52,578 nucleotides of DNA from a virus: positions 1 through 52,578 of IMG/VR virus record IMGVR_UViG_3300022918_000015. The stretch is one strand, 5' to 3'. The notes under the pieces were generated by a model. It did no database searches. It had not been told where the DNA came from and saw only the letters and a program-made list of their open reading frames with translations. A program made the translations under genes and the position numbers. Position 1 is the first letter of the stretch. Each line of letters opens with the position of its first letter. Below, piece after piece: positions 1 through 52,578 of the stretch.

Positions 1-810
1 CAACAACCAGTTTTAGTTGGTAAGGAAAATAATTTAAATACAAATAATTTTATTAAAACAATTAAAGTGCCTGGATTAAATCAAGACTTCACTATTAATG
101 AAGATAGTATATTTAACTTGTCTAAAATGTATGAGGATTTTGATTCAGCAACTGATAATCTAAACTCAGAAACTATTGATTTGTTTAAAAAAGAATTAGA
201 AGAAGGAAATTTAAGTGAAAATATAAAAATACAAGGAGATGAAACTTTAGTTAGTGAAGAAGACGAATTGAGTGAACAAGAAACTGCCGACGAAGAGGTA
301 AGAAAACTATTGAAATCAATTGGAGGATTAGACAATAAAAAAGCTAATAAGAAAACAACTAATGAAGAACCGCCTGAAATTAAACCTCCAGGAAATAGTC
401 TGGGAGGGTTATTAGCGGGAGATAGTTTTAATCCTGATTACATTCCTGATTATAATCCAAAGCAAAATAAAATACAAAATTTAATGATAGACAATACTGA
501 AGACGAAATGGATGATAGCTCTAGTAATAATTATGTAGAAACTTTATCACATACAGATGAAGACGAAATACTTGATAATAAAAGCATATTAGATTCCAGA
601 TTGAAAAGATATGTTGAAAAACTAGAGTCTGGAAAACTATCTAAGGAAAAAATAAAATCAAGTTTTGACGATTTTAATGCTAACACTTATGAGAAATTAA
701 TACAATTAATAAATATTCTTTATAGTGATAATTTAGATAATGCAAATAAATTTATTACATTTGCAAATAAAATTTACAATAAACCAGAAGATAATAATAA
801 AAACTGTTAA
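1..810 (+). CDS. Acidic protein of unknown function, 5' end cut off by the window
   Basis: The reading frame is open from base 1, so the gene starts upstream of the window; the GTG at 67 is only an internal valine codon. The visible 269 residues are strongly acidic, with clusters such as EEDELSEQ and DEDEI, lysine-rich patches, and no recognisable catalytic motif or membrane segment. Its stop overlaps the start of the virion RNA polymerase gene by one base (TAATG), so the two are translationally coupled. By position it is probably a late, virion-associated or cargo protein. That role is inferred from its neighbours only. Confidence 0.8.
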   Translation, partial: QQPVLVGKENNLNTNNFIKTIKVPGLNQDFTINEDSIFNLSKMYEDFDSATDNLNSETIDLFKKELEEGNLSENIKIQGDETLVSEEDELSEQETADEEVRKLLKSIGGLDNKKANKKTTNEEPPEIKPPGNSLGGLLAGDSFNPDYIPDYNPKQNKIQNLMIDNTEDEMDDSSSNNYVETLSHTDEDEILDNKSILDSRLKRYVEKLESGKLSKEKIKSSFDDFNANTYEKLIQLINILYSDNLDNANKFITFANKIYNKPEDNNKNC

Positions 811-10600: not shown

Positions 10601-12874
10601 TTAAAAAATGCTCCTAAAACAGAATCTAATCAAAAATTAATTGAAGCTAAAAACGAACAAATTAAAGTATTAAAAAAAGAAAGACAGAAAACTATAAAAG
10701 AAAGAACCAGAGATGAAGATGATTTCAGAGATAGTTATATTCATCCTGATTTTGATAAATTAAACGATAAAGAAAAGGAAGATTTAAGATTTATACATAA
10801 AAATCTAACTGATGCAGATAATAGATTATATACAATACCTGAAAAGAAATTAACTCAAGAACTTGAAGACGGAACAATAATTTATAATCTTCCGAAAGAT
10901 AGAATGAGTGGTATTGAAGCAACTTATAAAGCAGGAGGAATTATTGGTACATTTAAGTCTAAGTTTGAAGACTTATTAAGACCGCCAGCAGATGAAGATA
11001 GTGAAAATATAACTAACCAAGAATATGGTTCAGAAAGTAAATTCGGAACTAATGAATTGGATGGATATGGGAATGAAGTATTTTCAGTTCCTGTTTACTA
11101 TAGAAATGATTTAGAAAATGATGAATTACAATCCTATGATATTCCTAGCTTACTAGCAATGAATCACGATACCACTATCACTTATGAAGAAAACAAACTA
11201 GTTGAAGCAGATTTATTTGTTATTGCAGAAAGTTTAAGTTCTAAAAACAATGACAAAATACTTAAAACAGATAGCTTTATTAACAGAAAAATACAAAACG
11301 CTGTTGGAAATAACTTTCAAAAATCTGATCAAAACTTAGTTTATCAAGCTGTAAAATCAAGTATAGATAACAGACTGTATAAACGTGCTTATAATGGAGT
11401 TTATTCAAAACAAAACTACCAGTTAATTAAAGGAGCTGAAGCAGTAAGTAAATATGCAAGTACTCTAGTTCTAGCTGGAAACTTTATGTCTGCTTTGTCT
11501 ACATTTACTCAAGGTAGTATTTATAGATTATTAGAGGCAAGTGTTGGAGAACATTTTACAATTACTGATTGGCAAAATGGAACTAAAAAAGCTTGGTTAG
11601 ATTTTCCAAACATGTTAAAAGATTCTCAAAAATATACTCCCGAAAGCAAAAGTGCATTATTGATTAAGAAATTTGGACTTGAAACACAATCACATGCTTT
11701 GACTAATAAATTTGTTCAGGATAATTTTGTAAAAAAACAATTAGACTCAGGTACTTTATTTTCAGTTACAAGTATGGCAGAAGCGGTTGTTACAAGTAAC
11801 TTGATGTACTCATTATTAAGCAACGTAAAGGTCACAAATGATAAAGGCGAATATATTAATCAAGAGGGAGAGAAAGTGTCTAAAAACGATGCTATGAGCC
11901 TTGACGAAGCATATACCGTAGTAGATGGTAAACTTGAATTAAATAAATTTGTAAAATACACAAGTTTTAATATTACAAGCAAATATAATGACGGTCAAAA
12001 TAAAGATAATACAATTGCAGCTACTGAGATATCAAGATACATAAGAAGCGTCTATGCTGATTTATATGGTCAATATAATCAAGATATGAAATCTGTTATG
12101 CAAAGAAATATTGCCGGTAAATTAATAATGAGTTTGAGGGGATGGTTGCCAAGAGGGGTTAACAGACGTTGGAGAGGTATTACGGATGCTATTGGTAAAG
12201 ATTTCATGAGTTTTGATGAATTAAGAGATGAAGCTAATATAGATAAAAGATTTTATTCTCAAGATCAAAAACAATTTCAAGAAGGACATTATACTACTAC
12301 TATTAGATTTATAAAGAGTTTAAGAAAACTAATGAAACAAAATCAAGAAGGATTATCTGCAAATAGAAAAACCTTAAGAGAATCTATGACAGATCATGAA
12401 ATAGCTAACTTAAAACGTACTCAGTACGAAATGGCTACGATGTTAATAATGATGGCTATGGCTATGTTGCTACGCACTATAGCAATGAGTTCTGAAGGAG
12501 ATGACAAGGATAAAGAAAAAATATATTTTGCAGCTTATTTAGCTTATAGAGTCCAAACAGAATTATCTACGTTTATATCACCTCCTGCTATGATGGAAAT
12601 GTTAACTAATCCAGCAGCAAGTATAAGTGTAGTGCAAAGAGTATTTGATTGGATGTGGCAATTAACTGGAGTAGCTTATTCTAAAGAAGAAGGTTGGGGA
12701 GTTAACATAAATGATGTTTATGATAAAGGAGATAAACAAGATGAAAGCAAAGCTTTACTTAAATCATATGGATTAGTTCCCTTTTATGTTAAAACAAACC
12801 AAATGAAAAGTATTCTAGGATTAGAAAGTAAAAATCCGATATCAGATTCATTTCAATACTCAATAAGTAAATAA
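7637..12874 (+). CDS. Giant virion protein with zincin-like and Cas4/RecB-like nuclease motifs
   Basis: The protein has 1,745 residues. An HEFGH zinc-protease motif lies at 159-163, with a downstream KEVLATAIG segment that could supply a third ligand. A PD-(D/E)XK-type nuclease signature follows: GQIIHNALE (H472), GTADLI (D532) and YDFKT (D546, K548). The middle is charged and helical. The C-terminal third holds hydrophobic stretches, notably about 1600-1617 (MLIMMAMAMLLRTIAM), which could insert in a membrane. Its place directly after the RNA polymerase fits the large cargo proteins of crAss-like virions, so it may be ejected with the polymerase to process host or phage molecules. The enzymatic roles are inferred from short motifs. 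Confidence 0.75.
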   Translation: MAGTCVNKSSAEFIALKEQTGIDEVLLAANVSIWQDENGIDKFPTEEELNSFSTEDEILFNQYTSTEDAIQKFYSTKSDNNTLSRKLNLNLSDRSEDSINITERKIEILKQSLNAEVLIDASIPDSGQLLPANHPLSKRYGKPVIVINPNKLFSDTVIHEFGHLYIDLLKEDDGVLNQAYGLLRNTEFYSNIAAEYPELSLVDLDKEVLATAIGIEGDRIFNRDLQDLSNWQKLKNWILNKLSSIFSVQPNAIEKLATELLSNQVRVSGVENYNTIITQRSKYKIDSASSNKQQDVLDLFKKLTKDFTKQTVDNENIYIDKEGNIHNNSVTKNIKQYQRRFNSKDKGDYEMVFDRTLFNVDNIEFQLNQPRVPMALTRALNDFMNERIVSISFTKDVSDKNWYDAYTREIIEDATGEVDEVQQMEANLLSSQTGGAITFKANILKHLDLILNRAEEYQLSANQRPIVGQIIHNALENYINEETPFPSNISDEDNALLNSIKNIIDTGIANGSRFVTEQILYSENKQIPGTADLIEITKSGEAIIYDFKTVNSFSGKDKGNEYEKKPQSLYFDKGYIHQLLSYGAILNQYDINLADDPYHILMAEVKYSNIEDLDSTITIGEVRNTSMSSKELLPLLNSAKTAIFNEFATSSELEHINIKPDIQNLNDLSEKINSVISIYKRRTRNIASNLDTRDIDQIQKDLIKNQDIEADINKYIAKNNEVIINSYVDNLYNSLSILEQQKEYIGEVPTPEFLQSLNYVLQSTEALEDIKKILSENIPFEDKDKLLKTINKTLKIVEENKKYYKQKLQRLSISQLTENSNLMQGLYAEKYQREAKKLGKKTKEEITLYIEQELKKNETIIKVKEIQYWTKQYEDGFADLRFLEYLIADPGMSKSQFVQLTKNILDKADQSTRNKMMDVIPDIANWYNNISYEKTGDPRKVWDRFLEKNAKNDNKPTGAVIPEFTSKFREMFLQYSYQLKALYRELNKLKNAPKTESNQKLIEAKNEQIKVLKKERQKTIKERTRDEDDFRDSYIHPDFDKLNDKEKEDLRFIHKNLTDADNRLYTIPEKKLTQELEDGTIIYNLPKDRMSGIEATYKAGGIIGTFKSKFEDLLRPPADEDSENITNQEYGSESKFGTNELDGYGNEVFSVPVYYRNDLENDELQSYDIPSLLAMNHDTTITYEENKLVEADLFVIAESLSSKNNDKILKTDSFINRKIQNAVGNNFQKSDQNLVYQAVKSSIDNRLYKRAYNGVYSKQNYQLIKGAEAVSKYASTLVLAGNFMSALSTFTQGSIYRLLEASVGEHFTITDWQNGTKKAWLDFPNMLKDSQKYTPESKSALLIKKFGLETQSHALTNKFVQDNFVKKQLDSGTLFSVTSMAEAVVTSNLMYSLLSNVKVTNDKGEYINQEGEKVSKNDAMSLDEAYTVVDGKLELNKFVKYTSFNITSKYNDGQNKDNTIAATEISRYIRSVYADLYGQYNQDMKSVMQRNIAGKLIMSLRGWLPRGVNRRWRGITDAIGKDFMSFDELRDEANIDKRFYSQDQKQFQEGHYTTTIRFIKSLRKLMKQNQEGLSANRKTLRESMTDHEIANLKRTQYEMATMLIMMAMAMLLRTIAMSSEGDDKDKEKIYFAAYLAYRVQTELSTFISPPAMMEMLTNPAASISVVQRVFDWMWQLTGVAYSKEEGWGVNINDVYDKGDKQDESKALLKSYGLVPFYVKTNQMKSILGLESKNPISDSFQYSISK

Positions 12875-32760: not shown

Positions 32761-34116
32761 TTAATATCTATTATACATTTGTTCAACAACATACCAACCA
32801 CCAGAAGAAGCACAAAGCTCTTTTAGTCCAGGATTTTCTGTACCAAAGCATAATGCGTTAATTTTAACTCCCTTAGATTTGACCTCTTTAGGATTAACAT
32901 GATCATCTCCATCTAGCATGATTACAATCTCAGGATCGTGAAATGTAGTATCAGTAGCAATCTCATCAATAGTTTCTTGTAAACAATAACCAATATGAGT
33001 ACCACCACCACTAGGTCTTCTCAAGCTTATATCTTTAAATAAATCCTGAGCTTCTTTAAGGGTTTTAACTTCTTTATATCCATATCGTTTAGACTCATAT
33101 AAATAAAAGTTAAGTTTAGCCTTACCTTGCATTACTCCTTCGAGGTAATTCAATAAAGTAGCTCTAACATAAGATTGTTTTTGAATACTTCCCATTGAAC
33201 CAGAATCATCAAGCATTAATGTTACAACTTGCTTTCTTGTTTCAGGTAGTACCTTTTCTTTGATAGTTAATTCTTTTTTTGCAAGCTTATCATCAAAATT
33301 AGGCAATACCATTTGAGTCTTACTAGCCTTCATTACTTGACTATAACTAGACATATTTTTGATACGTTTCTTATTAGATTTATTGTTTTCAACTAACTTT
33401 GTTTCCAAAGAAGTTTCCATTCCAATTTTTTCTTCTAAATAAGTCTTAACTTTAATATCTCTTAATATACCAGGATTAATTGGCATATCAGGAACCTTCT
33501 CAGCAGCATATATATTAGCAATAGTTGGAGATAAATCATAAAGAAAATCTCTAACACATGAAATAACATCTTTTGATAAAGCTTGGTTAGAAGGTTTAGA
33601 TGAACTATCACCTCCATTATCATCAGGAACTCCTTTACTCATCTCTTTAATCAAATCAGATAATGATTGAGGATCTAAAGTAGTTTTACCGTTTCCTTTT
33701 GGATTTTGTTGAGCAGAATTAGTTTCATTAGACTTACTTAAATGCACCATGTACATCAAAGTATTTAATGTTTTATCCATTGGTGAATAACCTGGGCATT
33801 CTGGATAATTTAAACCTTCAAGAAACTTTAAAGTATATCCATAATAAGCTTTTTCAGACTCAGTCAATTCTCTATTCAATACCTCTTTACAAGTATCTAG
33901 TGAAAATACATGATTTTTAAAATCAAAATCAATACTTTCTTCTCTTTCTTGAGTAAATAAATAATATAAATCTTCTATGATTGGTGGGACTTTAATAAAG
34001 CCACCACCAAATTCATAGTTTTTATCACGAGCTAACTCGTTTATATAATCTAACTCAGGCAAAGTAATTGTATTAGTAAGGTTTATAGTAAACCCTTCTG
34101 TTCTTCCATTACTCAT
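32761..34116 (-). CDS. VWA-domain protein partner of the MoxR ATPase
   Basis: A 451-residue protein. The C-terminal domain (about 295-451) is a von Willebrand A domain with the MIDAS sequence DDSGS (D303-x-S305-x-S307), a GGGTHIG loop providing the threonine, and a later MLDGDD strand. The N-terminal 290 residues are helical with a Ser/Asn-rich linker. VWA proteins partner with MoxR-type AAA+ ATPases, here encoded 9 bases upstream, to remodel or assemble other complexes with metal-dependent binding. The target is unknown. Confidence 0.85.
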   Translation of the reverse strand: MSNGRTEGFTINLTNTITLPELDYINELARDKNYEFGGGFIKVPPIIEDLYYLFTQEREESIDFDFKNHVFSLDTCKEVLNRELTESEKAYYGYTLKFLEGLNYPECPGYSPMDKTLNTLMYMVHLSKSNETNSAQQNPKGNGKTTLDPQSLSDLIKEMSKGVPDDNGGDSSSKPSNQALSKDVISCVRDFLYDLSPTIANIYAAEKVPDMPINPGILRDIKVKTYLEEKIGMETSLETKLVENNKSNKKRIKNMSSYSQVMKASKTQMVLPNFDDKLAKKELTIKEKVLPETRKQVVTLMLDDSGSMGSIQKQSYVRATLLNYLEGVMQGKAKLNFYLYESKRYGYKEVKTLKEAQDLFKDISLRRPSGGGTHIGYCLQETIDEIATDTTFHDPEIVIMLDGDDHVNPKEVKSKGVKINALCFGTENPGLKELCASSGGWYVVEQMYNRY

Positions 34117-34125
34117 ATTTTCTTT

Positions 34126-35433
34126 TTATTTCTTTAATTGTTCAATTATTTCTTTAACTTCAGTCTTTTTCTTACCTGCTCTGTCCATATTTTTGGCAGA
34201 CCATTTATGAATATCCATCAATGAAACAACATATTTAAGCTTGTCCATTTTGATTGCAGCAGAAGTTTCATCAATCTCTACCTTAACATCTTCTCCTGTT
34301 CTTGATTTATGTTCTCCAATAATCAAGTCAAGCAATTTTGCATTAGTATCGATTTCTCCTAAATTATTATTTTTAACATAATCAGCAATCATTCTGAACA
34401 TTTCTTCATCAGCCGTTTCTTGTTCTTTATCTTTATTTTCTTTATAATACTTATTCAATATTTCTTTGTCAATATCATAAATATATTTCAAATCTCCACC
34501 ATCACAGTATAATTTTGCAGCGTGAATAGCCGTTCTCGGAGAAACAAAATGTGATTTATCATTCATTCCGTTATTGATAGATAAAATTTCAGATAACTCA
34601 ATAAGTTTACCTTTATTTCTATTGAAGAACGTATCTCCAAATACTTTTTTAAATAAACTTGTAAAATTATTTTTGCTATAAGAATCCCATTCTACTTTCA
34701 AAGTCAATGGAAAACGTTGTGCTAAGGCTTCTAAACTATCATCCTCAGAAAAATCTTCTTTAGACTTATTTGTAAGACCAATAAATATTTTAGTCTTACA
34801 AGGGTGTACTTGATTACCTTTTCTAGCTTTTTTAGATGTCATAACATCTTTAAGAGCCAATAGAACTTGTGGTGGAGCATCAAAGATTTCTTCAAATACA
34901 ACAACCTCATGTTCTAAAAAGCTATTTTTAAATAGATATTCTAATTCACCCGTATCTTTAAATTTCTTAATATTGATGCCGCCAAACAATCCTTCTTCAG
35001 TTAAACCGTCTCCACAAGTTAATACAAATGGTTCTTCTGTAATTAATCCTTCTTTTTTCATTAAGTTAAGAATCAATTCAGTACCTTCTGATTTATTATG
35101 ACCACCACGACCATACAAGATAACATTTTGATTAAGTCTCACACCTCTTGTAAGGGCATCTGCCATATCTTCCATGAATATAGATGATTTACATACTTCT
35201 GCAAGAATTTTTGCGTGAGTTGGATCGTAATTAGCTCCAGTGGCTACTTCAATCAAGTCTTTACTAATCTGAAAAGGATCTACCTTGAAATAACCTTGCT
35301 TTTGAATTTTTTCATATTCACTATCTGGAATAACTAAACTTAAGCCTTCAAGTAATTTATAATCTTGTTCTTCAATAACAGGAAATATTTGTTTTAAATC
35401 TACACTTTCAATACTTTTAAATACTATTTTCAT
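34126..35433 (-). CDS. MoxR-like AAA+ ATPase
   Basis: A 435-residue protein. The nucleotide-binding loop reads GRGGHNKS (108-115), with Asn in place of the usual Gly before Lys114. VVVFEE (177-182) is Walker B, a sensor-1-like IFIGLTNKS follows, and an arginine-finger-like ALAQRFP comes later. The order and the adjacent VWA gene identify the MoxR/CobS group. Such pairs act as chaperones or remodellers, for example in metal insertion or complex maturation. A conserved but altered P-loop raises the question of ATPase activity. Confidence 0.82.
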   Translation of the reverse strand: MKIVFKSIESVDLKQIFPVIEEQDYKLLEGLSLVIPDSEYEKIQKQGYFKVDPFQISKDLIEVATGANYDPTHAKILAEVCKSSIFMEDMADALTRGVRLNQNVILYGRGGHNKSEGTELILNLMKKEGLITEEPFVLTCGDGLTEEGLFGGINIKKFKDTGELEYLFKNSFLEHEVVVFEEIFDAPPQVLLALKDVMTSKKARKGNQVHPCKTKIFIGLTNKSKEDFSEDDSLEALAQRFPLTLKVEWDSYSKNNFTSLFKKVFGDTFFNRNKGKLIELSEILSINNGMNDKSHFVSPRTAIHAAKLYCDGGDLKYIYDIDKEILNKYYKENKDKEQETADEEMFRMIADYVKNNNLGEIDTNAKLLDLIIGEHKSRTGEDVKVEIDETSAAIKMDKLKYVVSLMDIHKWSAKNMDRAGKKKTEVKEIIEQLKK

Positions 35434-41479: not shown

Positions 41480-42277
41480 TTATAAATTTCCTAAAAACAT
41501 ATTAATAATAGATTGATGACCATTTCCTAAACTTGTTAATGATTTAACATTGTTAGAAGCATCTTTATACATAATATCTGAATTTGCATAATCCATAGTT
41601 ATATCAGCTATTTCTAAATTAAATCCATCAAATTTATTTATCATTTCATTTAATTTAGGCAATTCTCCTAACTTTAAACTAGGTTGAGATATAATACCTG
41701 AGTCTATTTTGCGAAATAATAATTCCATGTAAATTATATCATATATTCTATACATATCACATAATTTTTTAAGCTCATCTTCAGTGAATTTACTCATATC
41801 ATTAGAAATACCTAAAGCCTTCTTAAACTTTAAGTAAGCAACAATATTTGTAAACAATCTGATATTAGTACTCATAAATTGAGGTTGACCAGTTGGCTGT
41901 AAATTAGAATTATAAGTACTAATACAGTCTATGATATCTCCTTTCAGCATCTTAATTAATAAAGTACTACCACATTCAAATTCAAAATGAATATCTCCTG
42001 TAATATCTTGATTGGTAAAAGTGTTATCTAATATAAACTTAGCCATTTTAATATCATCACGAACTGGTATTTTGTGAACATCTGATATAATAATATTATT
42101 TAATATTGTACTTAATGCCCAAGTTAGTTTTAATATCAAACTTTTTCCTGATCCGTTATGACCAACTAAAATTATGAGACTATTAAAATCCATATCCAGA
42201 TTTTTAAATTGCTCTAACATGCCTGGACCAGTGTTAGATATCTTCATGTGTTTTACATGTCCTAATGTTTTACTCAT
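41480..42277 (-). CDS. SMC/ABC-type ATPase lacking an obvious Walker B
   Basis: A 265-residue protein. Walker A is GHNGSGKS (K45). The C-terminal end has SLTSLGNGHQSII, an ABC-signature-like sequence. The protein stops about 10 residues after the signature, so the Walker B and D-loop that normally follow are missing. It may be a truncated or regulatory ATPase, or depend on a partner for the second half of the site. The RNA element at 42291-42354 lies 13 bases upstream of its start. Confidence 0.62.
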   Translation of the reverse strand: MSKTLGHVKHMKISNTGPGMLEQFKNLDMDFNSLIILVGHNGSGKSLILKLTWALSTILNNIIISDVHKIPVRDDIKMAKFILDNTFTNQDITGDIHFEFECGSTLLIKMLKGDIIDCISTYNSNLQPTGQPQFMSTNIRLFTNIVAYLKFKKALGISNDMSKFTEDELKKLCDMYRIYDIIYMELLFRKIDSGIISQPSLKLGELPKLNEMINKFDGFNLEIADITMDYANSDIMYKDASNNVKSLTSLGNGHQSIINMFLGNL

Positions 42278-42290
42278 AATTATTTTATTA

Positions 42291-42354
42291 AAAGTGTTGA
42301 TCTGACCTTTAACCAGATAGTACCACGGCTTAGAGCTGTCGGTAGCAACACTTT
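42291..42354 (-). ncRNA. Three-way-junction RNA, copy A
   Basis: A closing helix of 9 bp (AAAGTGTTG at 42291-42299 with CAACACTTT at 42346-42354) encloses two arms. One is ATCTG...CAGAT (42300-42304 with 42314-42318). The other is TACC...GGTA (42321-42324 with 42341-42344), extended by ACGGC...GCTGT. Single-base (G42345) and two-base (AG 42319-42320) junction linkers remain. A second copy at 44741-44801 has the same arms and linkers with different stem sequence. Located between the ABC ATPase and the AAA ATPase genes. Confidence 0.72.
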
Positions 42355-42359
42355 ATTAT

Positions 42360-43172
42360 TTAACTTCTTAATATATCTTCTCTAATTTTCTTAGACAATT
42401 CTAAATGCTTTTCACCAAAATGCTCCCAAGCTAATCCCATAGCTTTTAAATCATAATGAGATATTATAGTGCTAACTTGATCTTCGGGATTTTCATGTCC
42501 TAAAATATAAATACTATCAGCTAAATTAACAGCTAAGTTAATATCATGAGTTGAAAATATAACTGTATTTAAATCATTAGTTTGAGAAATATGTTCAAAG
42601 CTTTCTTTAAGTTTCTCTATATTACCTACATCTAAACCTGAAGCTGGTTCATCAAAAACAATATACTTCTTTGAAGTAAATAATTGTTCTAGAATAGCAG
42701 TTCTTTGACGTTGACCTCCAGATAGCTCATTTGGATATTGATCCTTTTGAGACAGCAATTTCCATTCATTTAAAGCATCTACAATCATAGTATGTTTTTC
42801 TGCATTAGATAATTTTTGTTTTCTTAATGCAAACTTTAAACATTCATAAACAGTCTTATGTCTAAATAAAGTATAAGCTTGATCAACAAATCCAGCATCC
42901 CCTTCTGATATTATTTTACAGCTATTAGCATTATAATCATCAGATACTAATATTTGACCAGAAATTGGCTTAATTAATCCAGCTAAAGCTTTAAATAATG
43001 TACTTTTACCTCTACCTGATCTACCTAATATTGCAATACATTGACCAGTTATTTTATCTGTTCTGGTAATATTCTTTTCCTCAAGACTAATATCTTTCAG
43101 AATAATTTTATTACCATATCCAATATTTACCTTATCAAGATATAATATTGTATTTTCTAATTTATATTCCAT
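42360..43172 (-). CDS. ABC transporter ATP-binding protein (nitrate/sulfonate/taurine-type)
   Basis: A 270-residue protein with every motif of an importer ATPase: Walker A GRSGRGKS (50-57), Q-loop glutamine (Q98 in FVDQAYTLF), signature LSGGQRQR (150-157), Walker B IVFDE (171-175) and H-loop FSTHD (H209). The order and length resemble SsuB/TauB/ThiZ-type subunits. It lies 2 bases below a small membrane gene and 4 genes below the solute-binding protein. It would energise import of a small anion or vitamin precursor. Phage-encoded importers are rare. Confidence 0.92.
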   Translation of the reverse strand: MEYKLENTILYLDKVNIGYGNKIILKDISLEEKNITRTDKITGQCIAILGRSGRGKSTLFKALAGLIKPISGQILVSDDYNANSCKIISEGDAGFVDQAYTLFRHKTVYECLKFALRKQKLSNAEKHTMIVDALNEWKLLSQKDQYPNELSGGQRQRTAILEQLFTSKKYIVFDEPASGLDVGNIEKLKESFEHISQTNDLNTVIFSTHDINLAVNLADSIYILGHENPEDQVSTIISHYDLKAMGLAWEHFGEKHLELSKKIREDILRS

Positions 43173-43174
43173 AA

Positions 43175-43384
43175 TTAATTAAAATAAGTATATAAATTTC
43201 TACCAAATATTAGCCAAATAATTCCATCAATTAAAAAGAAACCAGTTAGATAATAAAGTACTACAACAAAATACAAAAAACTATAAATTAAAATCATAGT
43301 TATAAAACTTAAACAAAATATTATTCTTTCCTTAAAATTACTTGGCCTACTATCCCAGTAATTACAAAACTCATTTACTGACAT
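43175..43384 (-). CDS. Small single- or double-pass membrane protein within the ABC operon
   Basis: A 69-residue protein with a continuous hydrophobic region from about residue 20 to 60 (IIFCLSFITMILIYSFLYF; VVLYYLTGFFLIDGIIWLI). Two spans with a short turn are likely. It lies 2 bases from both the permease and ATPase genes, so it may be a subunit or regulator of the transporter. Confidence 0.65.
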   Translation of the reverse strand: MSVNEFCNYWDSRPSNFKERIIFCLSFITMILIYSFLYFVVVLYYLTGFFLIDGIIWLIFGRNLYTYFN

Positions 43385-43386
43385 AA

Positions 43387-44166
43387 TTAAAAATTTGAAT
43401 ATCTAAAAAACAACCTTCTTAAACTTATTAAACTATAATCTATAGATTTTCCAATCATTAATATTATAATTTGCAAAGCTATTACTTCACCTTGAGAACC
43501 ATTCTTTTGATTGGTACCAATTAAATAACCTAATCCACCACTAGCAGTATTAATTAATTCTATTACTACAAGCATATTAAATATAATAGCAAGGTTTTGT
43601 CTTACAGCTTCAATAACAAAATCAAAACGACCCTTTATCATTACTTCAAGTATTATCTCCCAACGAGAACACCCTATACTTTTAGCATGATTAATTTCAT
43701 TTTCAATCGATTTCTTTGACAGACTCTGCAATAAACTTGTTATTAAAAATAAACTCATAAATATTACTAATACTGTTACCTGTATATTTCTTGCATTATG
43801 AATTATAATACTAATATATAAACTAATACCAACTAATGGCAAAAATCTAAACGTACTAATTAAATCACAAAATGGCTTAATAACAGGTAGAGGACTTAGG
43901 TATACTACTATACAAGAGATTATAACGCTATATAAACTAGCTTGTAAAAATAATAAGATCGAACTGGAAATATGGGTCATTAACCCTAAATTCCAGGCAC
44001 TAACAAAACCATTAAATACTTGCGTAATTGTTGGAAATAAATGTGTAGTGCCTACAAAACTAGAAATTACCCACCATCCCAGAATAAAAGTTAACCACAA
44101 GAGTATAACTAAATTATTCTGAGATTTGGATAACTCCTCAAAAGGTCTAAATAATTTATTTAGCAT
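43387..44166 (-). CDS. ABC transporter permease (nitrate/sulfonate/taurine-type)
   Basis: A 259-residue protein with about six hydrophobic spans (first at about 20-38, LVILLWLTFILGWWVISSF). The cytoplasmic ATPase-contact loop is visible at about 155-173 (ENEINHAKSIGCSRWEIIL), where a Gly at 165 matches the conserved EAA loop glycine. Late GGLGYLIG and a final span complete the BPD_transp_1 layout of SsuC/TauC-type permeases. It lies 15 bases downstream of the outer-membrane-like gene. Confidence 0.88.
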   Translation of the reverse strand: MLNKLFRPFEELSKSQNNLVILLWLTFILGWWVISSFVGTTHLFPTITQVFNGFVSAWNLGLMTHISSSILLFLQASLYSVIISCIVVYLSPLPVIKPFCDLISTFRFLPLVGISLYISIIIHNARNIQVTVLVIFMSLFLITSLLQSLSKKSIENEINHAKSIGCSRWEIILEVMIKGRFDFVIEAVRQNLAIIFNMLVVIELINTASGGLGYLIGTNQKNGSQGEVIALQIIILMIGKSIDYSLISLRRLFFRYSNF

Positions 44167-44181
44167 TTTTGAGATAACTAA

Positions 44182-44679
44182 TTAAAAACTATAACTAATA
44201 CTAGGAGACAAGTAATTAACTTCATCCCAGTTACTAAAACTAAGACCTATACTCACGTTTTCATGCGTATAACCAATTCCAACTCCAACTTCTGTAAAAT
44301 AATCATCAGATCCAAAATATCCGCCTGCACCTGCAATTAGGCTACCAGTTAAATTTCCCACTAATTTATAATTTGGTGAAATTTTAGCTTCCCAGAAATA
44401 ATTAGTAATCTGATCTTTGTCAAAAACATCAACTAGATTACTTCTTCCAAATACAGCTCCATAAGAGATGTTATTGCAAGTAACACCACCTTCTACTGTG
44501 GCATATGAATTTTCTTGCCAATCTCCTTGAAGATGCATAGATAATCCAAGACTCACATAATGAGTAAGTGTATTTACAGATTTAGTTTCTACAACATCCA
44601 CTTGAGGTTGTTCAATTGTTTGAGCATTCATGCTCATTGCTCCTAAGAACAACATTCCTACGATTAAGAATTTTTTCAT
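44182..44679 (-). CDS. Secreted putative outer-membrane barrel protein
   Basis: A 165-residue protein with a Bacteroidota-type signal peptide (MKKFLIVGMLFLGAMSMNAQ, cut after NAQ). The mature part has alternating strands (SNLVDVFDKDQITNYFWEAK; YVSLGLSMHLQGDW; VGIGYTHENVSIGLSF) and ends in aromatic ISYSF, a typical outer-membrane barrel end. At about 145 residues, it could be a small barrel. It is the first gene of the permease-ATPase part, so it might be the outer-membrane entry point of the importer. Confidence 0.72.
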   Translation of the reverse strand: MKKFLIVGMLFLGAMSMNAQTIEQPQVDVVETKSVNTLTHYVSLGLSMHLQGDWQENSYATVEGGVTCNNISYGAVFGRSNLVDVFDKDQITNYFWEAKISPNYKLVGNLTGSLIAGAGGYFGSDDYFTEVGVGIGYTHENVSIGLSFSNWDEVNYLSPSISYSF

Positions 44680-44699
44680 TTTTTTTGTTTTGTGTTTTA

Positions 44700-44712
44700 A
44701 GTGCTATGCACT
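44700..44712 (-). other. Short perfect palindrome in the barrel-gene leader
   Basis: AGTGC-TAT-GCACT lies 20 bases upstream of the barrel protein start. It could be an operator for a dimeric repressor or a small hairpin in the message. No known consensus is recognised. Confidence 0.35.
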
Positions 44713-44740
44713 ATTAATATTAAATTTAATTAAAAAAAAT

Positions 44741-44801
44741 AAGATATTGATCTGACTTGTTTAAACAGATAGTACGACTTGCAAGAACGTAGCAATAGCT
44801 T
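44741..44801 (-). ncRNA. Three-way-junction RNA, copy B
   Basis: The same fold as 42291-42354. The closing helix is AAGATATTG (44741-44749) with CAATAGCTT (44793-44801, one mismatch). The invariant arm is ATCTG...CAGAT (44750-44754 with 44766-44770) and the second arm TACG...CGTA (44773-44776 with 44788-44791). Linkers are again AG and G. Relative to copy A, the second arm's inner pair changes from C-G to G-C and the closing stem differs, yet pairing is kept, which argues for selection on structure. It lies 61 bases upstream of the barrel gene. Confidence 0.72.
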
Positions 44802-44803
44802 AT

Positions 44804-44853
44804 AAAAGTAAAATGGAAGAGATCGAGAGTTTCCAGTATGCTATTTTACTTTT
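44804..44853 (-). ncRNA. Hairpin next to three-way-junction copy B
   Basis: An 11-bp stem (AAAAGTAAAAT at 44804-44814 with ATTTTACTTTT at 44843-44853) closes 28 bases with an inner GGAA...TTCC pair. It directly precedes copy B on the - strand. It may be part of a two-domain leader, for example a partial terminator or processing signal before the barrel-permease-ATPase genes. Confidence 0.5.
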
Positions 44854-44887
44854 TTATTTTAAAAGAGTTAATTGACTTTATCGCTCT

Positions 44888-45163
44888 TTATAATTTATAA
44901 TGTAATTTATTATTGATAAAATAATTATAATTATCTAATAGAAATCTTTTTCTACATTTAACAGTAGTAGCTTTATAATTTCCAAGATACCAATTACCAT
45001 TTTTATCTAGAATAGCTTTGCTTACATGGTTAAAACATAAATTATTATTAAATATATAAAAATCTTTTTCATTAAAATAAGAAGATTCTCTAAATTTAAA
45101 ATTATGTTCTTTATGATGTAAATAATATAATACTAATCCTGTTATAATAATAAATATATACAT
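44888..45163 (-). CDS. Small single-pass membrane protein
   Basis: A 91-residue protein: one N-terminal span (MYIFIIITGLVLYYLH) and then a soluble, basic, aromatic part (FYIFNNNLCFNHVSKAILD; ATTVKCRKRFLLDNYNYF). Its start is coupled to the stop of the solute-binding-OmpA gene by a 1-base overlap. It is the last gene before the RNA-containing spacer at 44680-44887. Function unknown. Confidence 0.6.
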   Translation of the reverse strand: MYIFIIITGLVLYYLHHKEHNFKFRESSYFNEKDFYIFNNNLCFNHVSKAILDKNGNWYLGNYKATTVKCRKRFLLDNYNYFINNKLHYKL

Positions 45164-47001
45164 TATTTTAAAAGAGTTACTTGAACCCTTCTGTTTTTAT
45201 ACCTACCTTCAGCTGTATTATTATTGCCAATAGGTTTTTTATCTCCCAATCCTTCTACAGATTCAACTGCTTGGAATGGTAAACCTTGATTTTGCAAATA
45301 CTCTAGTACAGCGTTAGCTCTAGATTTAGATAAAATTTGATTTTGATCAGGATTACCGGTATTATCAGTATGGCCTTCAATAATGATTTTAGTTCCCTCA
45401 GCTTGAACAATTAAATTGTATAATTCTTTAAGTTGTTTATCGCTTGAATGCAATATCTCCGAACTACCTGAATTAAAATTGATTTGCCAGCTTCCAGATG
45501 CCATTACAGACGTTAACTTTTTAGAATAGTCTACTTGTTTCACTTCACCTGAATTAATACCTGAAATCGCTTGTAATGACGTCAAATCAACTGCTTTATC
45601 ATAAGGAGTAACTTTTTTAACAGCATCACTGAATCCATTTGGATTAAGATCTGTCAAATAATTAGCAACTTGTTCATAAACAGATTTGTATCTATTAATT
45701 CCATCATCACCTAATCCATAATATTGCAAAGCATCTGCATGATTCATAATTCTAGTACCACCAGCAATTTGACCATTACTTAAAGTTTTACCTTTAAACA
45801 TTTCATACCAATATTGAGGAGATTGATAACCGTAAGTTTTAGCAACACATTGTGAAGCTTTAACTCTCCAATCATCATATAACTTCATTTGATTAGCAGC
45901 AGTATAAGTAGCTTTCAAAATATTAACAACCACGTCTGGGTTAGCATCAGACCATTCTTTTAAGACTATTAAAGTTGTAGTCATTTGATTAGGAAAATCT
46001 TTAGTAGAAGATATAGTTACTGCGTGAGGAACTTTATCAAATATCATTTTATCTCCAGGCAACCAAGTACTACATAAATCAATTTTTCTAGATACAGTCT
46101 TACCTGTTGGCTTACCATCTTTAAGTTCTTTCATGTCATAAACCTTTCCATTTAATTGAGATGCAATATAATCATTTGCACATTCAATAATATTTGGATT
46201 ATGAATAAAGTTTACAGCTTCTGGATCATACGTACCGATGTTTGGATTTACTTTAATACCTTTATTAGCAAATATATAATTCAATGCTACAACCCAGTCA
46301 CCGTCTCCTACAGCAGTTACGATAACAGCTCCTTTAAGATTAGCCGGATTATCAATATATTTTTTATCTCCAATAAGTTTATCTTCTCCATAACTAGCTC
46401 CATAACAAGCCTTAACTACAGCGTGATATTTATCTTCACCAAATTTATCGTCAAGCATTTTATTTAATGTTGATATAAAATAAGGAGCGCCATCACCCAT
46501 AATACTTACTCCGAATGCACTAGTATTGCTTTGTGGATTTAAATTCCCTGAATCAAATTCAGCAGTAAAATTAACCATAGCAGCTTGTAATAGACTAAAA
46601 TCATCCTGACGTCCTATATTAAGATTTACACCATATTTTTCCATTAAACTATTTTCAGAAGTTTGAGGACCGCCATTAGCTACAATCATAGTACTATTAC
46701 CATTCCAAGTATACTCAAGTAAATTATACTTAGTTTTACTTTTTACTTTAGTTGATAAACTGTTTCCTGGCAAATCGATTTTATCTGCTTTAGAAGCGTT
46801 ATCAATTACGGTTCCATCAATTTCCAAATCATTACCTGTAGTAGATTTTAGAAAGTTCATTCCGGGGGCAAAAAAGGCTACTGCTAAATAAGCTATAACG
46901 ATAATAGCTATTACACCCAATACTTTAAGTGTATTACGACCTTTGGGAGTTAGGTTATCCCACCAACTTGTTTTTGTTTGATTTTGATTAAAATTTTCCA
47001 T
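45163..47001 (-). CDS. Membrane-anchored solute-binding protein fused to a C-terminal OmpA domain
   Basis: A 612-residue protein. Residues 26-46 (KVLGVIAIIVIAYLAVAFFA) form an N-terminal membrane anchor. Residues about 70-490 look like a periplasmic solute-binding domain of the NMT1/PstS/nitrate type (MIVANGGPQTSENSLMEKYG, then QAAMVNFTAEF; AVIVTAVGDGDW; TTTLIVLKEW). Residues 497-612 are an OmpA/MotB peptidoglycan-binding domain: FNSGSSEIL, GHTDNTG (543-549) and GRYKNRRV (599-606). This would fix a captured-solute receptor between inner membrane and cell wall, serving the permease and ATPase encoded below. Confidence 0.85.
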   Translation of the reverse strand: MENFNQNQTKTSWWDNLTPKGRNTLKVLGVIAIIVIAYLAVAFFAPGMNFLKSTTGNDLEIDGTVIDNASKADKIDLPGNSLSTKVKSKTKYNLLEYTWNGNSTMIVANGGPQTSENSLMEKYGVNLNIGRQDDFSLLQAAMVNFTAEFDSGNLNPQSNTSAFGVSIMGDGAPYFISTLNKMLDDKFGEDKYHAVVKACYGASYGEDKLIGDKKYIDNPANLKGAVIVTAVGDGDWVVALNYIFANKGIKVNPNIGTYDPEAVNFIHNPNIIECANDYIASQLNGKVYDMKELKDGKPTGKTVSRKIDLCSTWLPGDKMIFDKVPHAVTISSTKDFPNQMTTTLIVLKEWSDANPDVVVNILKATYTAANQMKLYDDWRVKASQCVAKTYGYQSPQYWYEMFKGKTLSNGQIAGGTRIMNHADALQYYGLGDDGINRYKSVYEQVANYLTDLNPNGFSDAVKKVTPYDKAVDLTSLQAISGINSGEVKQVDYSKKLTSVMASGSWQINFNSGSSEILHSSDKQLKELYNLIVQAEGTKIIIEGHTDNTGNPDQNQILSKSRANAVLEYLQNQGLPFQAVESVEGLGDKKPIGNNNTAEGRYKNRRVQVTLLK

Positions 47002-47032
47002 TTGTTTTTAATTATAGTTTTTAAATTAATTA

Positions 47033-48154
47033 TTAAAATATTCCTCCAATTCCACCTGTAGCGTCTTTTTCTTCAGCCGTAAGTTTCAAATCAGGATTAT
47101 TAAATCGTTTAGCACTAGGAATAATATCAGTACCAGCTTTAATATTGGCTACTAATTTATCCAATTGATTGAAAGACTTACTAGGGTCACCAATATTGAT
47201 ATTACCCATAGCGTCTTTAATATCTTGTAAGTTGTTTTTAGTTGTAGCAATATTATTTGCAATAGCACCTAACACTACTTCAGAAGCGAATTGAACTTCC
47301 CATTTATCATTAAAGTTTAATACATTTTTAACAGCATCTGTTCCAGCTCTCATTGCGCTAGTAGCTTCAAAATCATTCTTAAGTATCTGAACTGTTGAGT
47401 CAAAATTCTTAACACGATTTTTGAGATAACTAACAAAATATTTATACTGAGTCTCAAACTTAGTAAATACACTAGCTCTGGTTCCGAATTGAGTAATCAG
47501 ATCTTTAGCTTGTTCATAGTTCATTTCAACACGTTGATATTCCATAGCCAAATCATTTCGTTGAATACACAAATCAGCATACTCAGGATCTTCTTTAGAT
47601 TCTTCTGTAGTAAACTTTTCTATTTCTGTATTTAATTTAACAGCTTCTTCAGATATTTCAATTAATCTATCTTGATATTTTTTAGCGTCAAGTTGATTTT
47701 TAGTAGCATTAGATTTCATAGTCTCTTTACTTTGAGATATAATAGTACCAGCTCCAACAGCATCTTCATATTGTTGTACCAATTCTACTCTTTGTTCTCT
47801 AAATGCTCCAAAAGGATCATTAGTTATCCAAAATTCATGAAACTTACGAATCATAGACTTTACAATACCTTTTAATGGTTTTCTACAAGCATAGATTAAT
47901 AGAATGCTACCAACTATTGCCACAACTTGTCCAATTAGATAAAATCCTGCTGCCAATCCAGCTATAAAAGGTAATAAGATAGTCCATACAACATATCCAA
48001 TACCAATTAATCCAAGTATTCGTACTATGTTAAATACAGGTTTTTCACCTTTTTTCCATTCTTGCGGTATTAATTGTATTTCACTACTGTCAATACCGTT
48101 AAACAAAGGTAATCTACTTATCTTTGTTTGTGCGATCTGTTTAAAGTCACTCAT
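47033..48154 (-). CDS. Two-pass membrane protein with long coiled coil
   Basis: A 373-residue protein. Membrane spans lie at about 42-66 (FNIVRILGLIGIGYVVWTIL) and about 68-90 (AAGFYLIGQVVAIVGSILLI). A long coiled coil follows, about 140-310, and the C-terminus is glycine-rich (EKDATGGIGGIF). The coiled-coil part resembles PspA/toxic-anion-resistance-type proteins in amino-acid texture only. It lies 31 bases upstream of the solute-binding-OmpA gene and probably acts with it at the inner membrane. Confidence 0.65.
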   Translation of the reverse strand: MSDFKQIAQTKISRLPLFNGIDSSEIQLIPQEWKKGEKPVFNIVRILGLIGIGYVVWTILLPFIAGLAAGFYLIGQVVAIVGSILLIYACRKPLKGIVKSMIRKFHEFWITNDPFGAFREQRVELVQQYEDAVGAGTIISQSKETMKSNATKNQLDAKKYQDRLIEISEEAVKLNTEIEKFTTEESKEDPEYADLCIQRNDLAMEYQRVEMNYEQAKDLITQFGTRASVFTKFETQYKYFVSYLKNRVKNFDSTVQILKNDFEATSAMRAGTDAVKNVLNFNDKWEVQFASEVVLGAIANNIATTKNNLQDIKDAMGNINIGDPSKSFNQLDKLVANIKAGTDIIPSAKRFNNPDLKLTAEEKDATGGIGGIF

Positions 48155-48183
48155 TTTAATTATTTGTTATAGTTGTTAATTAA

Positions 48184-48396
48184 TTATTTTTCGTCTTTTT
48201 TATTGTAAAACAATGTATGCATTAATGCTGCAAACATTATCATCAATCCAATCCAACTAAGTATTGTCATAACTACAGTCGTTCTTTTGTCTTGAGGTTC
48301 ATGTGCATCTACGTGGTTTCTAAGTAAAGCACATATTACAAACATTACTGCGCATCCGGTTAAATAACACCAGAATAAATCAAATAAGCTTATCAT
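48184..48396 (-). CDS. Small two-pass membrane protein
   Basis: A 70-residue protein: spans at about 5-24 (FDLFWCYLTGCAVMFVICAL) and about 40-60 (TVVMTILSWIGLMIMFAALM), linked by a His/Asp-rich turn (RNHVDAHEPQDKR). The C-terminus is basic. It sits between the two coiled-coil genes, 4 and 29 bases from its neighbours, so is probably part of the same membrane assembly. Confidence 0.62.
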   Translation of the reverse strand: MISLFDLFWCYLTGCAVMFVICALLRNHVDAHEPQDKRTTVVMTILSWIGLMIMFAALMHTLFYNKKDEK

Positions 48397-48400
48397 ATTT

Positions 48401-49102
48401 TTATAAATTGTTTTTAATATTATTTTGAACTTTGTTTATTTTATCCATTAATTCACTATATGCTATTTGATTGGCTCCTGATTTAAGTTTAATTTCTCTA
48501 ACTTGAGGATCAAATTTCTCATTAATAGTTGTTAATTGTAATTCTGCTTCAGATATTTTTCTTTTTAATTCACTAATAGTAGCAATTAATGAAGATTCTG
48601 TACTAGACCATTGTGACTTAACTTGTTCAAGTTTGTTTTCTCCTTGCTTTTTAAGTTGATTAAAATTATCCATTAAGGTCTTAGCATACTGATTTGCTTG
48701 AGTATCTAATACTTCTTTAGTAAGATTACCAGAAGTCATTGACAAAGCCATTTTAAGAGCTTCTGCTGATTCTAAATTACCAAACTTACTTAGACCTTGA
48801 AATATCTCAAAGAAGTCTACATCGGGCTTATTTAGCTTTGTAAACTGATCATTATAGGCTTTTCTAAGTTGATCTAAATAAGGATTAATTTCATCTTTAA
48901 AACCTTGAGATTCTTGTTTAAAATCAATAGCTGGTTCTGGAAATCCCATTATCTTAGACTCTTCTTTAGATTCGGGATCAAAAAAAGTAGGCGCTGGATT
49001 TCTTGAAGGGAAAGTTGTTTTTGGATTTTCAACAAAAGGTTTATTTTCTTGAGTTGTTTCATCTGGTTTAACAAAACCCATATTTTGTAAAAAACTTTTC
49101 AT
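48401..49102 (-). CDS. Soluble coiled-coil protein of the envelope block
   Basis: A 233-residue protein. The first 70 residues are proline-rich and flexible (NPKTTFPSRNPAPTFFDPE); the rest is helical, with a coiled coil from about 140 to 230 (QYAKTLMDNFNQLKKQGENK; ELKRKISEAELQLTTINEK). It lies 4 bases above the two-pass membrane gene. It may bind the membrane coiled-coil protein encoded just downstream, by analogy in length and composition. Confidence 0.62.
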   Translation of the reverse strand: MKSFLQNMGFVKPDETTQENKPFVENPKTTFPSRNPAPTFFDPESKEESKIMGFPEPAIDFKQESQGFKDEINPYLDQLRKAYNDQFTKLNKPDVDFFEIFQGLSKFGNLESAEALKMALSMTSGNLTKEVLDTQANQYAKTLMDNFNQLKKQGENKLEQVKSQWSSTESSLIATISELKRKISEAELQLTTINEKFDPQVREIKLKSGANQIAYSELMDKINKVQNNIKNNL

Positions 49103-49857: not shown

Positions 49858-49880
49858 TTTAACTCTAATTTTAGTTATAG

Positions 49881-49963
49881 CTCCCAGGGAGGGATTCGAA
49901 CCCACACACAAGTGATTGTACTACCTTCACAGATAGCTTGTCTACCAATTTCAACACCCGGGA
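49881..49963 (-). tRNA. Class II tRNA, anticodon uncertain (possibly GTG)
   Basis: The acceptor pairs TCCCGGG (49957-49963) with CCTGGGA. The D-arm has the conserved ATTGGTAGA loop, the T-arm is GTGGG-TTCGAAT-CCCTC with one mismatch, and a long variable arm ACAA-TCAC-TTGT makes it class II. The anticodon loop is only 6 bases (TGTGAA) between CTATC and GGTAG; the best reading is GTG, which would be His, but a class II arm would suit Leu, Ser or Tyr. Discriminator is G. Identity is therefore open. Confidence 0.7.
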
Positions 49964-50218: not shown

Positions 50219-50227
50219 GATAATTAG

Positions 50228-50311
50228 TACCGAGAACCAGATTTGAACTGGCACGAGCTATTAAGCTCACGGAATTTTAAGTCCCGCATGTCTGCATTCC
50301 ATCACCTCGGC
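50228..50311 (-). tRNA. tRNA-Leu, anticodon TAA
   Basis: A class II tRNA of 84 bases. Acceptor GCCGAGG pairs with TCTCGGT (two G-T pairs), the anticodon arm is CGGGA-CTTAAAA-TTCCG, the variable arm is GAGCT-TAAT-AGCTC, and the T-arm GCCAG-TTCAAAT-CTGGT. UUA is a favoured leucine codon in this AT-rich sequence, so the tRNA would support phage translation. CCA is not encoded. Confidence 0.9.
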
Positions 50312-51506: not shown

Positions 51507-52578
51507 TTATTCTTTATAGATTTTTAGAGTATACTTTTCTTCTTTATTGTAAATCTTAATTATATAAATACCTTTTGGTAAGTTAGATAAATCGTGATTA
51601 TTTTTATTTAATTCTTGACCTAATATATTATAAACATTAAATTCATAATCTCTTATATTAGATATAATTAACTGATCATTATATATAAATGCTTTAACTG
51701 TCAAGTTGTTGATAATAACTGTTTGATTTAAATTATTATAACCTGTACTTTCTTCCCAAGTATTTTCATTAGCACATCTAATTGAATAAATAGGATTTGT
51801 AGGTATATCAATATCAGGTAAGTTTAAATATAATCTATAGTTTCCATTAGGTAAATTATTGTTAATAACATGATAAATTAAGCTACCGTTTACAACATCG
51901 CATTGCCAAAAGTTAGGATCTGTATTTAGTAATATGCTAAATTCCTGACCAGTTGCAATATTTTTATAAACAATATAAGCCTTTCTATCATTAACAAGAT
52001 TACCAAATCCTTTATTCTCTAGAGTAATAGAAATAGCATTGTTATTTATATAACTATTAAGTAATACAAATCTATATCCTAATCTATTAATTATCTCGCT
52101 TTTACAGTTATTTACTTGCCAATTATTCCAAACATCAGGATGATAAGACATATTTAAATAATTAAAATGAAATCTTTCCAATGTTAATAAAGCATTACTA
52201 CAATCTGTGCTTGGTGATATTAATCCACATGATTCTCCACCAGCAATAGTAAATCTCGTTTGACTATCTAAATATGAATATTCATTTGTTGTATTAGTAA
52301 ATCCTTCCCAACCTGTTCTTAAGAAACAATCATTATGATAACTCATCCTAGAAGCATTACTATTATTATACGCCTGTTCATTTGTTATAGCATTATTTCC
52401 TGTAATACTTCTCATTATACTTGGAGTTCTAAAAGCTATATTTCTTTTAGGACATAATTCAAATATTTTATTACCAATTTCAATTCTATTAGCTAATTGT
52501 GTAGCAGTTAAATTATCAGTATTGCCATAATTTGAACTATCATACCACTCACCATACTCACCTATAAATCCAGCTTCT
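51507..52578 (-). CDS. DUF4832-like secreted protein with T9SS C-terminal domain, 5' end cut off
   Basis: The frame is open to the right edge, so the start lies beyond the window; the ATG at 52415 is internal. The edge segment contains GFIGEYGEWYDSSNYG, recalling DUF4832/DUF4874 proteins (putative TIM-barrel glycoside-hydrolase-like). A beta-sandwich-like region follows, and the last 75 residues form a type IX secretion sorting domain (YNILGQEL, then LSNLPKGIYIIKIYN). In Bacteroidota such domains direct export across the outer membrane. In a phage it suggests a secreted carbohydrate-active or surface-modifying protein; the enzyme activity is inferred. Confidence 0.75.
   Translation of the reverse strand, partial: EAGFIGEYGEWYDSSNYGNTDNLTATQLANRIEIGNKIFELCPKRNIAFRTPSIMRSITGNNAITNEQAYNNSNASRMSYHNDCFLRTGWEGFTNTTNEYSYLDSQTRFTIAGGESCGLISPSTDCSNALLTLERFHFNYLNMSYHPDVWNNWQVNNCKSEIINRLGYRFVLLNSYINNNAISITLENKGFGNLVNDRKAYIVYKNIATGQEFSILLNTDPNFWQCDVVNGSLIYHVINNNLPNGNYRLYLNLPDIDIPTNPIYSIRCANENTWEESTGYNNLNQTVIINNLTVKAFIYNDQLIISNIRDYEFNVYNILGQELNKNNHDLSNLPKGIYIIKIYNKEEKYTLKIYKE

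What the first reader, a model, noticed from the sequence alone, without database searches (positions are those of the whole stretch)
41480..49102. A phage genome that appears to carry a complete ABC importer with a cell-wall-anchored receptor
Seen: all ATPase motifs (42360-43172), a permease with EAA-like loop (43387-44166), a solute-binding protein with N-terminal anchor and C-terminal OmpA domain (45163-47001), a signal-peptide barrel protein (44182-44679), and several small membrane proteins, all on one strand with 2-31 base spacing over most of the block. Known: phages seldom encode full importers. Inference: a trans-envelope uptake system made during infection, perhaps for a phosphate-, sulfonate- or thiamine-like solute.
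Basis: partly seen in the sequence, partly recalled or inferred. Interest (0 to 1): 0.88.

Follow-up and report, generated by a model that had tools for sequence, protein, structure and literature searches.

The report
Wall-anchored importer carried by huge phages
Many giant viruses of Bacteroidota bacteria, including some of the largest known, carry the same five-gene membrane machine: a nutrient-pump-like ABC transporter whose receptor is bolted to the host cell wall; it is also found on some host chromosomes, and I found no published description of it in phages.

Summary
The window is a phage fragment carrying an intact ABC ATPase, a NitT/TauT-type permease and a 612-aa solute-binding protein (SBP) with an N-terminal membrane helix and a C-terminal OmpA peptidoglycan-binding domain. 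The AlphaFold model of the SBP matches TauA (Z 25.2) and CmpA (Z 23.2). It is not mis-joined host DNA. The three genes belong to a five-gene module with two coiled-coil proteins (47033-48154, two membrane helices; 48401-49102, cytosolic). The order CC, TMCC, SBP-OmpA, permease, ATPase is kept in 65 of 76 phage-side loci, including Lak-A2 (541 kb), LR756500 (462 kb), LR756501 (735 kb) and contigs over 200 kb. The same operon lies on chromosomes of a minority of Bacteroidota, in two SBP subtypes; none was found in 310 sampled genomes of two other phyla. All five genes are under purifying selection. Best reading: a peptidoglycan-tethered importer with two extra scaffold or regulatory subunits, exchanged between huge phages and Bacteroidota. 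The substrate is unknown; conserved cleft-loop residues are mainly acidic, which speaks against a simple anion. A non-importing envelope device is the main rival. The 265-aa ATPase (41480-42277) and most small ORFs are not part of it.

The parts
48401..49102 (-). CC: 233-aa cytosolic coiled-coil protein, first gene of the conserved module
   Evidence: No hydrophobic helix; no Pfam family among 21 relatives above chance; 30% identity to LR756500 homologue, E 1.5e-16; present at the same place in most phage and bacterial loci
47033..48154 (-). TMCC: 373-aa protein, two N-terminal membrane helices (46-64, 69-87) then a long helical hairpin
   Evidence: helices; AlphaFold pLDDT 77.5 with helices 116-179 and 190-279; 30% identity to LR756500 homologue, E 1.4e-51; no Pfam family
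45163..47001 (-). SBP-OmpA: 612-aa solute-binding protein, N-terminal membrane anchor, C-terminal peptidoglycan-binding OmpA domain
   Evidence: OmpA 4.1e-21; NMT1 in homologues, best 1.2e-13; model pLDDT 88.3, pTM 0.85; TauA Z 25.2, CmpA Z 23.2, SsuA Z 23.0; OmpA motif in 73 of 73 members
43387..44166 (-). PERM: 259-aa NitT/TauT-type ABC permease
   Evidence: BPD_transp_1 2.6e-8; SaoP/TauC-like in NCBIfam; profile matches CmpB 1.2e-17 and NrtB 2.1e-14 in PDB; six hydrophobic helices
42360..43172 (-). ATP: 270-aa ABC ATPase
   Evidence: ABC_tran 7.3e-25; invariant LSGG-Q-R, DE, D-loop and H209 over 28 relatives; 58% identity to LR756500 homologue
44182..44679 (-). Optional accessory: 165-aa protein with signal-peptide-like N-terminus, between SBP and permease
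   Evidence: Homologues in 8 to 9 related phages, often in the same gap; no family
43175..43384 (-). 69-aa one-helix protein between permease and ATPase; not conserved
   Evidence: (no homologues)
44888..45163 (-). 91-aa protein just downstream of SBP-OmpA; not conserved, no membrane helix found
48184..48396 (-). 70-aa two-helix protein between CC and TMCC; not conserved
41480..42277 (-). 265-aa P-loop ATPase, neighbour but not part of the module
   Evidence: Only sub-threshold AAA_21/ABC hits; no homologue in module-bearing phages

Best explanation
A phage-borne, peptidoglycan-tethered ABC importer of the NitT/TauT class with two additional coiled-coil subunits. The SBP is held in the inner membrane by one N-terminal helix and gripped to the cell wall by its OmpA domain, so it is fixed at the periplasmic mouth of a permease homodimer driven by an ATPase homodimer (inferred from class). 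The two coiled-coil proteins, one membrane-embedded and one cytosolic, are proposed to scaffold or gate the pump on the cytosolic side. During infection of a Bacteroidota host the phage would make this pump to draw in a small, probably cationic or zwitterionic (or metal-bound) solute. Shown: genes, folds, motifs, conserved order, purifying selection, chromosomal counterparts. Inferred: assembly into one complex, uptake, substrate class, benefit to the phage.
For: ATPase and permease families; permease profile closest to CmpB and NrtB among solved structures; SBP fold TauA Z 25.2, CmpA 23.2, SsuA 23.0, NrtA 21.7; homologues hit NMT1, the bacterial counterpart SsuA_fam 3.5e-21 and urea-type SBP 3.9e-22; conserved residues W99, D133, D170, S203/G205/D207, D233-D235, W313, P315, D317 fall in loops at strand ends or helix starts, where this fold binds ligand (placement in the cleft inferred); catalytic ATPase residues invariant; OmpA motif in 73 of 73; same five genes in order in 65 of 76 phage-side loci and on bacterial chromosomes; one-ORF permease-ATPase in L062; dN/dS well below 1 for all five genes in pairs where dS could be estimated.
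Against: No transport data. Two coiled-coil proteins are not part of textbook NitT/TauT importers, yet are as strictly kept as the pump. In the long SBP subtype (the window's) the short subtype's G-T-x-S-H-T loop is replaced by G-D-G-D-W and large insertions are present, so ligand binding could have changed or been lost. Neither phage nor most bacterial flanks contain a constant metabolic partner that would use a substrate. No outer-membrane channel is encoded with it.
Confidence: 0.6

Rival explanations
1. An ABC-powered envelope device rather than an importer: ATP cycles in the permease are passed through the SBP-like domain to the peptidoglycan grip (as FtsEX or MacB pass force across the envelope), with the coiled-coil proteins as cytosolic levers. 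It would sense or stabilise the inner membrane and cell wall during the long infection of a huge phage, or remodel it.
For: Strict co-conservation of two coiled-coil proteins and the membrane-to-wall tether in all subtypes; MotB/ZorB-like layout of helix plus OmpA; TMCC's weak resemblance to Vipp1/PspA membrane-remodelling proteins; altered ligand loop in the long subtype; no metabolic gene constantly nearby.
Against: Permease is closest to genuine bicarbonate and nitrate importers, not to FtsX/MacB; SBP keeps invariant cleft-loop residues; Vipp1 match is not significant (E 0.022).
Confidence: 0.25
2. A membrane-associated guard against competing phages: the phage-coded complex occupies the inner membrane and wall and blocks or senses entry of a second phage (superinfection exclusion).
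For: Al-Shayeb et al. suggest that membrane proteins of huge phages may alter susceptibility to other phages (PMC7162821); TelA-type sub-membrane proteins have been proposed to prevent phage entry (PMC7824862); ZorB defence protein shares the anchor domain.
Against: Only the OmpA domain matches ZorB and generic ATPase domains match defence ATPases; TelA model found nothing in five genomes of which several carry the module; an ATP-driven permease with a ligand-type SBP is not needed for exclusion.
Confidence: 0.08
3. Host DNA wrongly joined to a phage contig, or a chance assortment of membrane genes.
For: The same operon exists on Bacteroidota chromosomes.
Against: Same order in Lak-A2 (circular), LR756500 and LR756501 and in dozens of viral contigs; huge records carry terminase genes; window flanks code phage primase, ligase and helicase-like proteins; no composition break.
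Confidence: 0.01

Closest known systems
NitT/TauT ABC importers (TauABC, SsuABC, NrtABCD, CmpABCD)
   Same: ATPase, permease and SBP folds; PDB best matches TauA, CmpA, SsuA, NrtA for the SBP and CmpB, NrtB for the permease
   Different: SBP fused to a membrane helix and an OmpA wall-binding domain; two extra coiled-coil subunits always in the operon; encoded by phages; 10-14% identity for the SBP
Chromosomal five-gene operon of Bacteroidota (Tenacibaculum, Aquimarina, Saprospiraceae and others), no published function found
   Same: Same five genes, same order, both short and long SBP subtypes; long-type flavobacterial copies nest within the window's phage clade
   Different: In many bacteria a CbbX-like AAA ATPase, and in some a 2-oxoglutarate dioxygenase, follow; no phage locus has that AAA
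MotB / ZorB / PAL-type peptidoglycan-anchored proteins
   Same: Membrane helix followed by periplasmic region ending in an OmpA domain
   Different: A full solute-binding domain in between; no MotA/ZorA partner in the module
Phage-borne single transporter parts such as cyanophage PstS (own knowledge)
   Same: Phage codes a nutrient-binding protein
   Different: There only the binding protein is usual; here the complete pump plus extra subunits, conserved across the largest phages

Membership tests
NitT/TauT ABC importer | ABC ATPase with Walker A, signature, Walker B, H-loop | tested here: met
   ABC_tran 7.3e-25; catalytic columns invariant or nearly so
NitT/TauT ABC importer | BPD_transp_1 permease of the TauC/NrtB/CmpB type | tested here: met
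NitT/TauT ABC importer | SBP of the TauA/SsuA/NrtA (NMT1) fold | tested here: met
NitT/TauT ABC importer | Free periplasmic or lipid-anchored SBP, no further subunits | tested here: not met
   Membrane helix plus OmpA domain, and two extra conserved genes; hence variant, not plain member
NitT/TauT ABC importer | ATP-driven uptake of a solute | not testable with these tools
   Needs biochemistry
OmpA/MotB peptidoglycan-binding anchor | TD..G....N..S..RA peptidoglycan-binding motif | tested here: met
   73 of 73 members; solved OmpA domains align at Z up to 18.8
MotB/ZorB motor or Zorya defence | MotA/ZorA partner gene | tested here: not met
   None among module genes or recurrent neighbours
TelA/Ter stress system | TelA family (PF05816) protein | tested here: not met
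   Module coiled-coil proteins hit no TelA model; no TelA in five genomes, several of which carry the module
PspA/Vipp1/ESCRT-III | Sequence or fold match of TMCC | tested here: inconclusive
   Two of 27 members hit PspA_IM30 at best 3.4e-4; Foldseek best Vipp1 E 0.022
FtsEX/MacB mechanotransmission ABC | FtsX/MacB-type permease | tested here: not met
   Permease is BPD_transp_1

The most novel reading that the evidence does not exclude
A previously undescribed five-part trans-envelope ABC machine, shared by the largest Bacteroidota phages and passed between them and host chromosomes, in which the wall-gripped SBP and the two coiled-coil proteins make it do mechanical or sensory work on the host envelope and not, or not only, solute uptake.
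Probability: 0.25. Interest if true: 0.9.

Novelty: new variant of a known kind. Interest (0 to 1): 0.76.

Why it matters
It shows that many huge phages, including Lak-A2 and a 735-kb genome, keep a full, selected membrane pump, so some of their large gene budget goes into running or holding the host envelope during infection. The unit exists on chromosomes of bacteria that can be grown, so its function can be tested directly, giving a handle on what huge phages gain from their size and on an uncharacterised Bacteroidota operon.

Tried and rejected
Single-protein scan of viral contigs with the 612-aa protein found nothing; alignments were needed. Phage-only origin of the long SBP subtype, suggested by the first tree, was rejected when long-type operons were found on chromosomes. 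TelA link of the coiled-coil proteins: not met. PspA/ESCRT-III identity of TMCC: inconclusive. Escherichia phage 613R3 hit is an OmpA-only match (yfiB with a diguanylate cyclase gene beside it) next to an integrase. Module outside Bacteroidota: 0 of 249 and 0 of 61 genomes in two other phyla, without a positive control in those phyla; MAG contigs labelled Thiotrichaceae, Fibrobacter, Caldithrix and Nanoarchaeota are probably mis-binned (inference). Promoter and terminator scan uninformative: counts near shuffled expectation. Literature: no description in Al-Shayeb 2020, three Lak papers, the Jug-phage preprint or the jumbo-phage overview, or in further searches; supplements and non-open papers were not searched.
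Full report
OBSERVATION. The window is a 52,578-base virus record whose flanks code a phage primase, ATP-dependent DNA ligase, DnaB-like helicase, exonuclease VIII-like protein and NinI-like phosphatase. Pfam confirms the ATPase (7.3e-25), permease (2.6e-8) and OmpA domain (4.1e-21). The SBP identity is not visible for the window protein alone but is for its homologues (NMT1 in 9 of 29, best 1.2e-13) and for the structure model (pLDDT 88.3, pTM 0.85), which matches TauA at Z 25.2 over 290 residues, CmpA 23.2, SsuA 23.0 and NrtA 21.7.

THE UNIT. Comparing the window with LR756500 (462 kb), Lak-A2 (541 kb, read with TAG as Q) and LR756501 (735 kb) showed the same five genes in the same order: a cytosolic coiled-coil protein (CC), a two-helix membrane protein with a long coiled hairpin (TMCC), SBP-OmpA, permease, ATPase (one search failed and was rerun). 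Scans of viral contigs with profile alignments brought 72 further loci; two pairs of loci are from the same contig. Of 76 phage-side loci, 65 have all five in this order; five lack only a detected CC, four more have part of the module (mostly contig ends), and two (L074, L075) are OmpA-only matches. Twenty of the IMG/VR contigs exceed 200 kb. A terminase family is found in 9 of 15 huge records tested, including Lak-A2, LR756500 and LR756501. Each huge record tested carries one TMCC copy. In L062 permease and ATPase are one 564-aa ORF (TAG as Q). The 165-aa secreted-type protein between SBP and permease recurs in eight to nine related phages. The 265-aa ATPase at 41480 and the other small ORFs do not recur.

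BACTERIAL COUNTERPART. The genome scan found 302 relatives of the SBP domain, the best 80 nearly all in Bacteroidota, with the same operon. Strong TMCC matches (E below 1e-50) occur in 18 of 296 evenly drawn genomes of the phylum of a Tenacibaculum genome. A search with the long SBP subtype found seven chromosomal copies in 395 genomes, in contexts such as beside atpA/atpG or an NtrC-type regulator and histidine kinase. None was found in 249 and 61 genomes of two other phyla, without a positive control there. Flanks are not constant, so the five genes are the unit; but in many short-type operons (Flavobacteriia and others) and in three flavobacterial long-type operons the next gene is a CbbX-like AAA ATPase, and in twelve short-type loci and one long-type locus a 2-oxoglutarate dioxygenase (of different families) lies nearby. 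A four-gene tree, midpoint-rooted, separates a short-SBP clade (Lak, LR756501, many bacteria) from a long-SBP clade (window, LR756500, many phages, a few bacteria); two flavobacterial operons nest inside the window's phage clade (support 0.995 and 0.973), so the module has moved between phages and bacteria.

FUNCTION. Shown: catalytic ATPase residues intact; permease closest to CmpB and NrtB; OmpA motif in all 73 members; dN/dS far below 1 for all five genes in phage pairs where it could be estimated. Conserved SBP residues lie at strand ends and helix starts, where this fold binds ligand, and are mainly acidic in both subtypes: D133, D170, D207, D317, D423, plus E206, D233 and D235 in the long type; the only basic residues conserved are R131 in the long type and position 204 (R) in the short type. 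That suggests a cationic, zwitterionic or metal-bound ligand rather than phosphate or sulfonate (inference, moderate). The short-type G-T-x-S-H-T loop becomes G-D-G-D-W in the long type, so the two may differ in substrate. The layout helix-SBP-OmpA places the receptor between inner membrane and wall (topology inferred from sequence and model). The role of the coiled-coil pair is inferred only.

LIMITS. All evidence is sequence and prediction. Bacterial sampling started from a short-type query. The tree is approximate. Completeness of the window phage is unknown. Novelty rests on an open-access full-text library without supplements.

Noticed in passing
window 51507-52415 (-): 302-aa protein with DUF4832 (3.4e-40) and a C-terminal type IX secretion sorting domain (7.4e-6, just below Pfam's cut-off): a possible phage-coded T9SS cargo, fitting a Bacteroidota host; near the contig end, so its start may be incomplete.
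   Followed up: partly
window 34126-35433 (-): MoxR-type AAA ATPase of the bpMoxR family (1.6e-12), next to a 451-aa protein (32761-34116) without family.
   Followed up: no
window 810-12874 (+): Two very large adjacent ORFs (2275 and 1745 aa) on the opposite strand from nearly all other genes.
   Followed up: no
window 49880-49963 and 50227-50311 (-): Two tRNA genes just upstream of the module, one with an unusual four-base anticodon reading (gtga) by ARAGORN.
   Followed up: no
L115 12267-15077, L170 4225-6371: In bacteria the module is often followed by a CbbX/SpoVK-like AAA ATPase; a 2-oxoglutarate dioxygenase also lies nearby in twelve short-type loci and one long-type locus, from different dioxygenase families.
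   Followed up: partly
L062 9705-11399; L175 11576-13024: Permease and ATPase in one ORF (L062, 564 aa with TAG read as Q); in L175 a 482-aa ATPase ORF with no separate permease suggests the same.
   Followed up: partly
L003, L007, L050, L051, L055, L061, L062, L063, L074, L075: Loci whose open frames lengthen clearly when TAG is read as glutamine, so the module occurs in recoded and standard-code phages.
   Followed up: partly
L011 8757-9570: ATPase gene split into two ORFs (192 and 94 aa): frameshift or sequencing error.
   Followed up: no
L119 (JAUSIT010000016.1), L145, L134, L092: Contigs binned as Nanoarchaeota, Caldithrix, Fibrobacter and Thiotrichaceae that carry Bacteroidota-like module genes; probably mis-binned.
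   Followed up: partly
L006, L018, L029 and others: A recurrent ~217-aa GIY-YIG-like homing-endonuclease-type ORF lies near the module in 11 phage loci (family judged by eye only).
   Followed up: no
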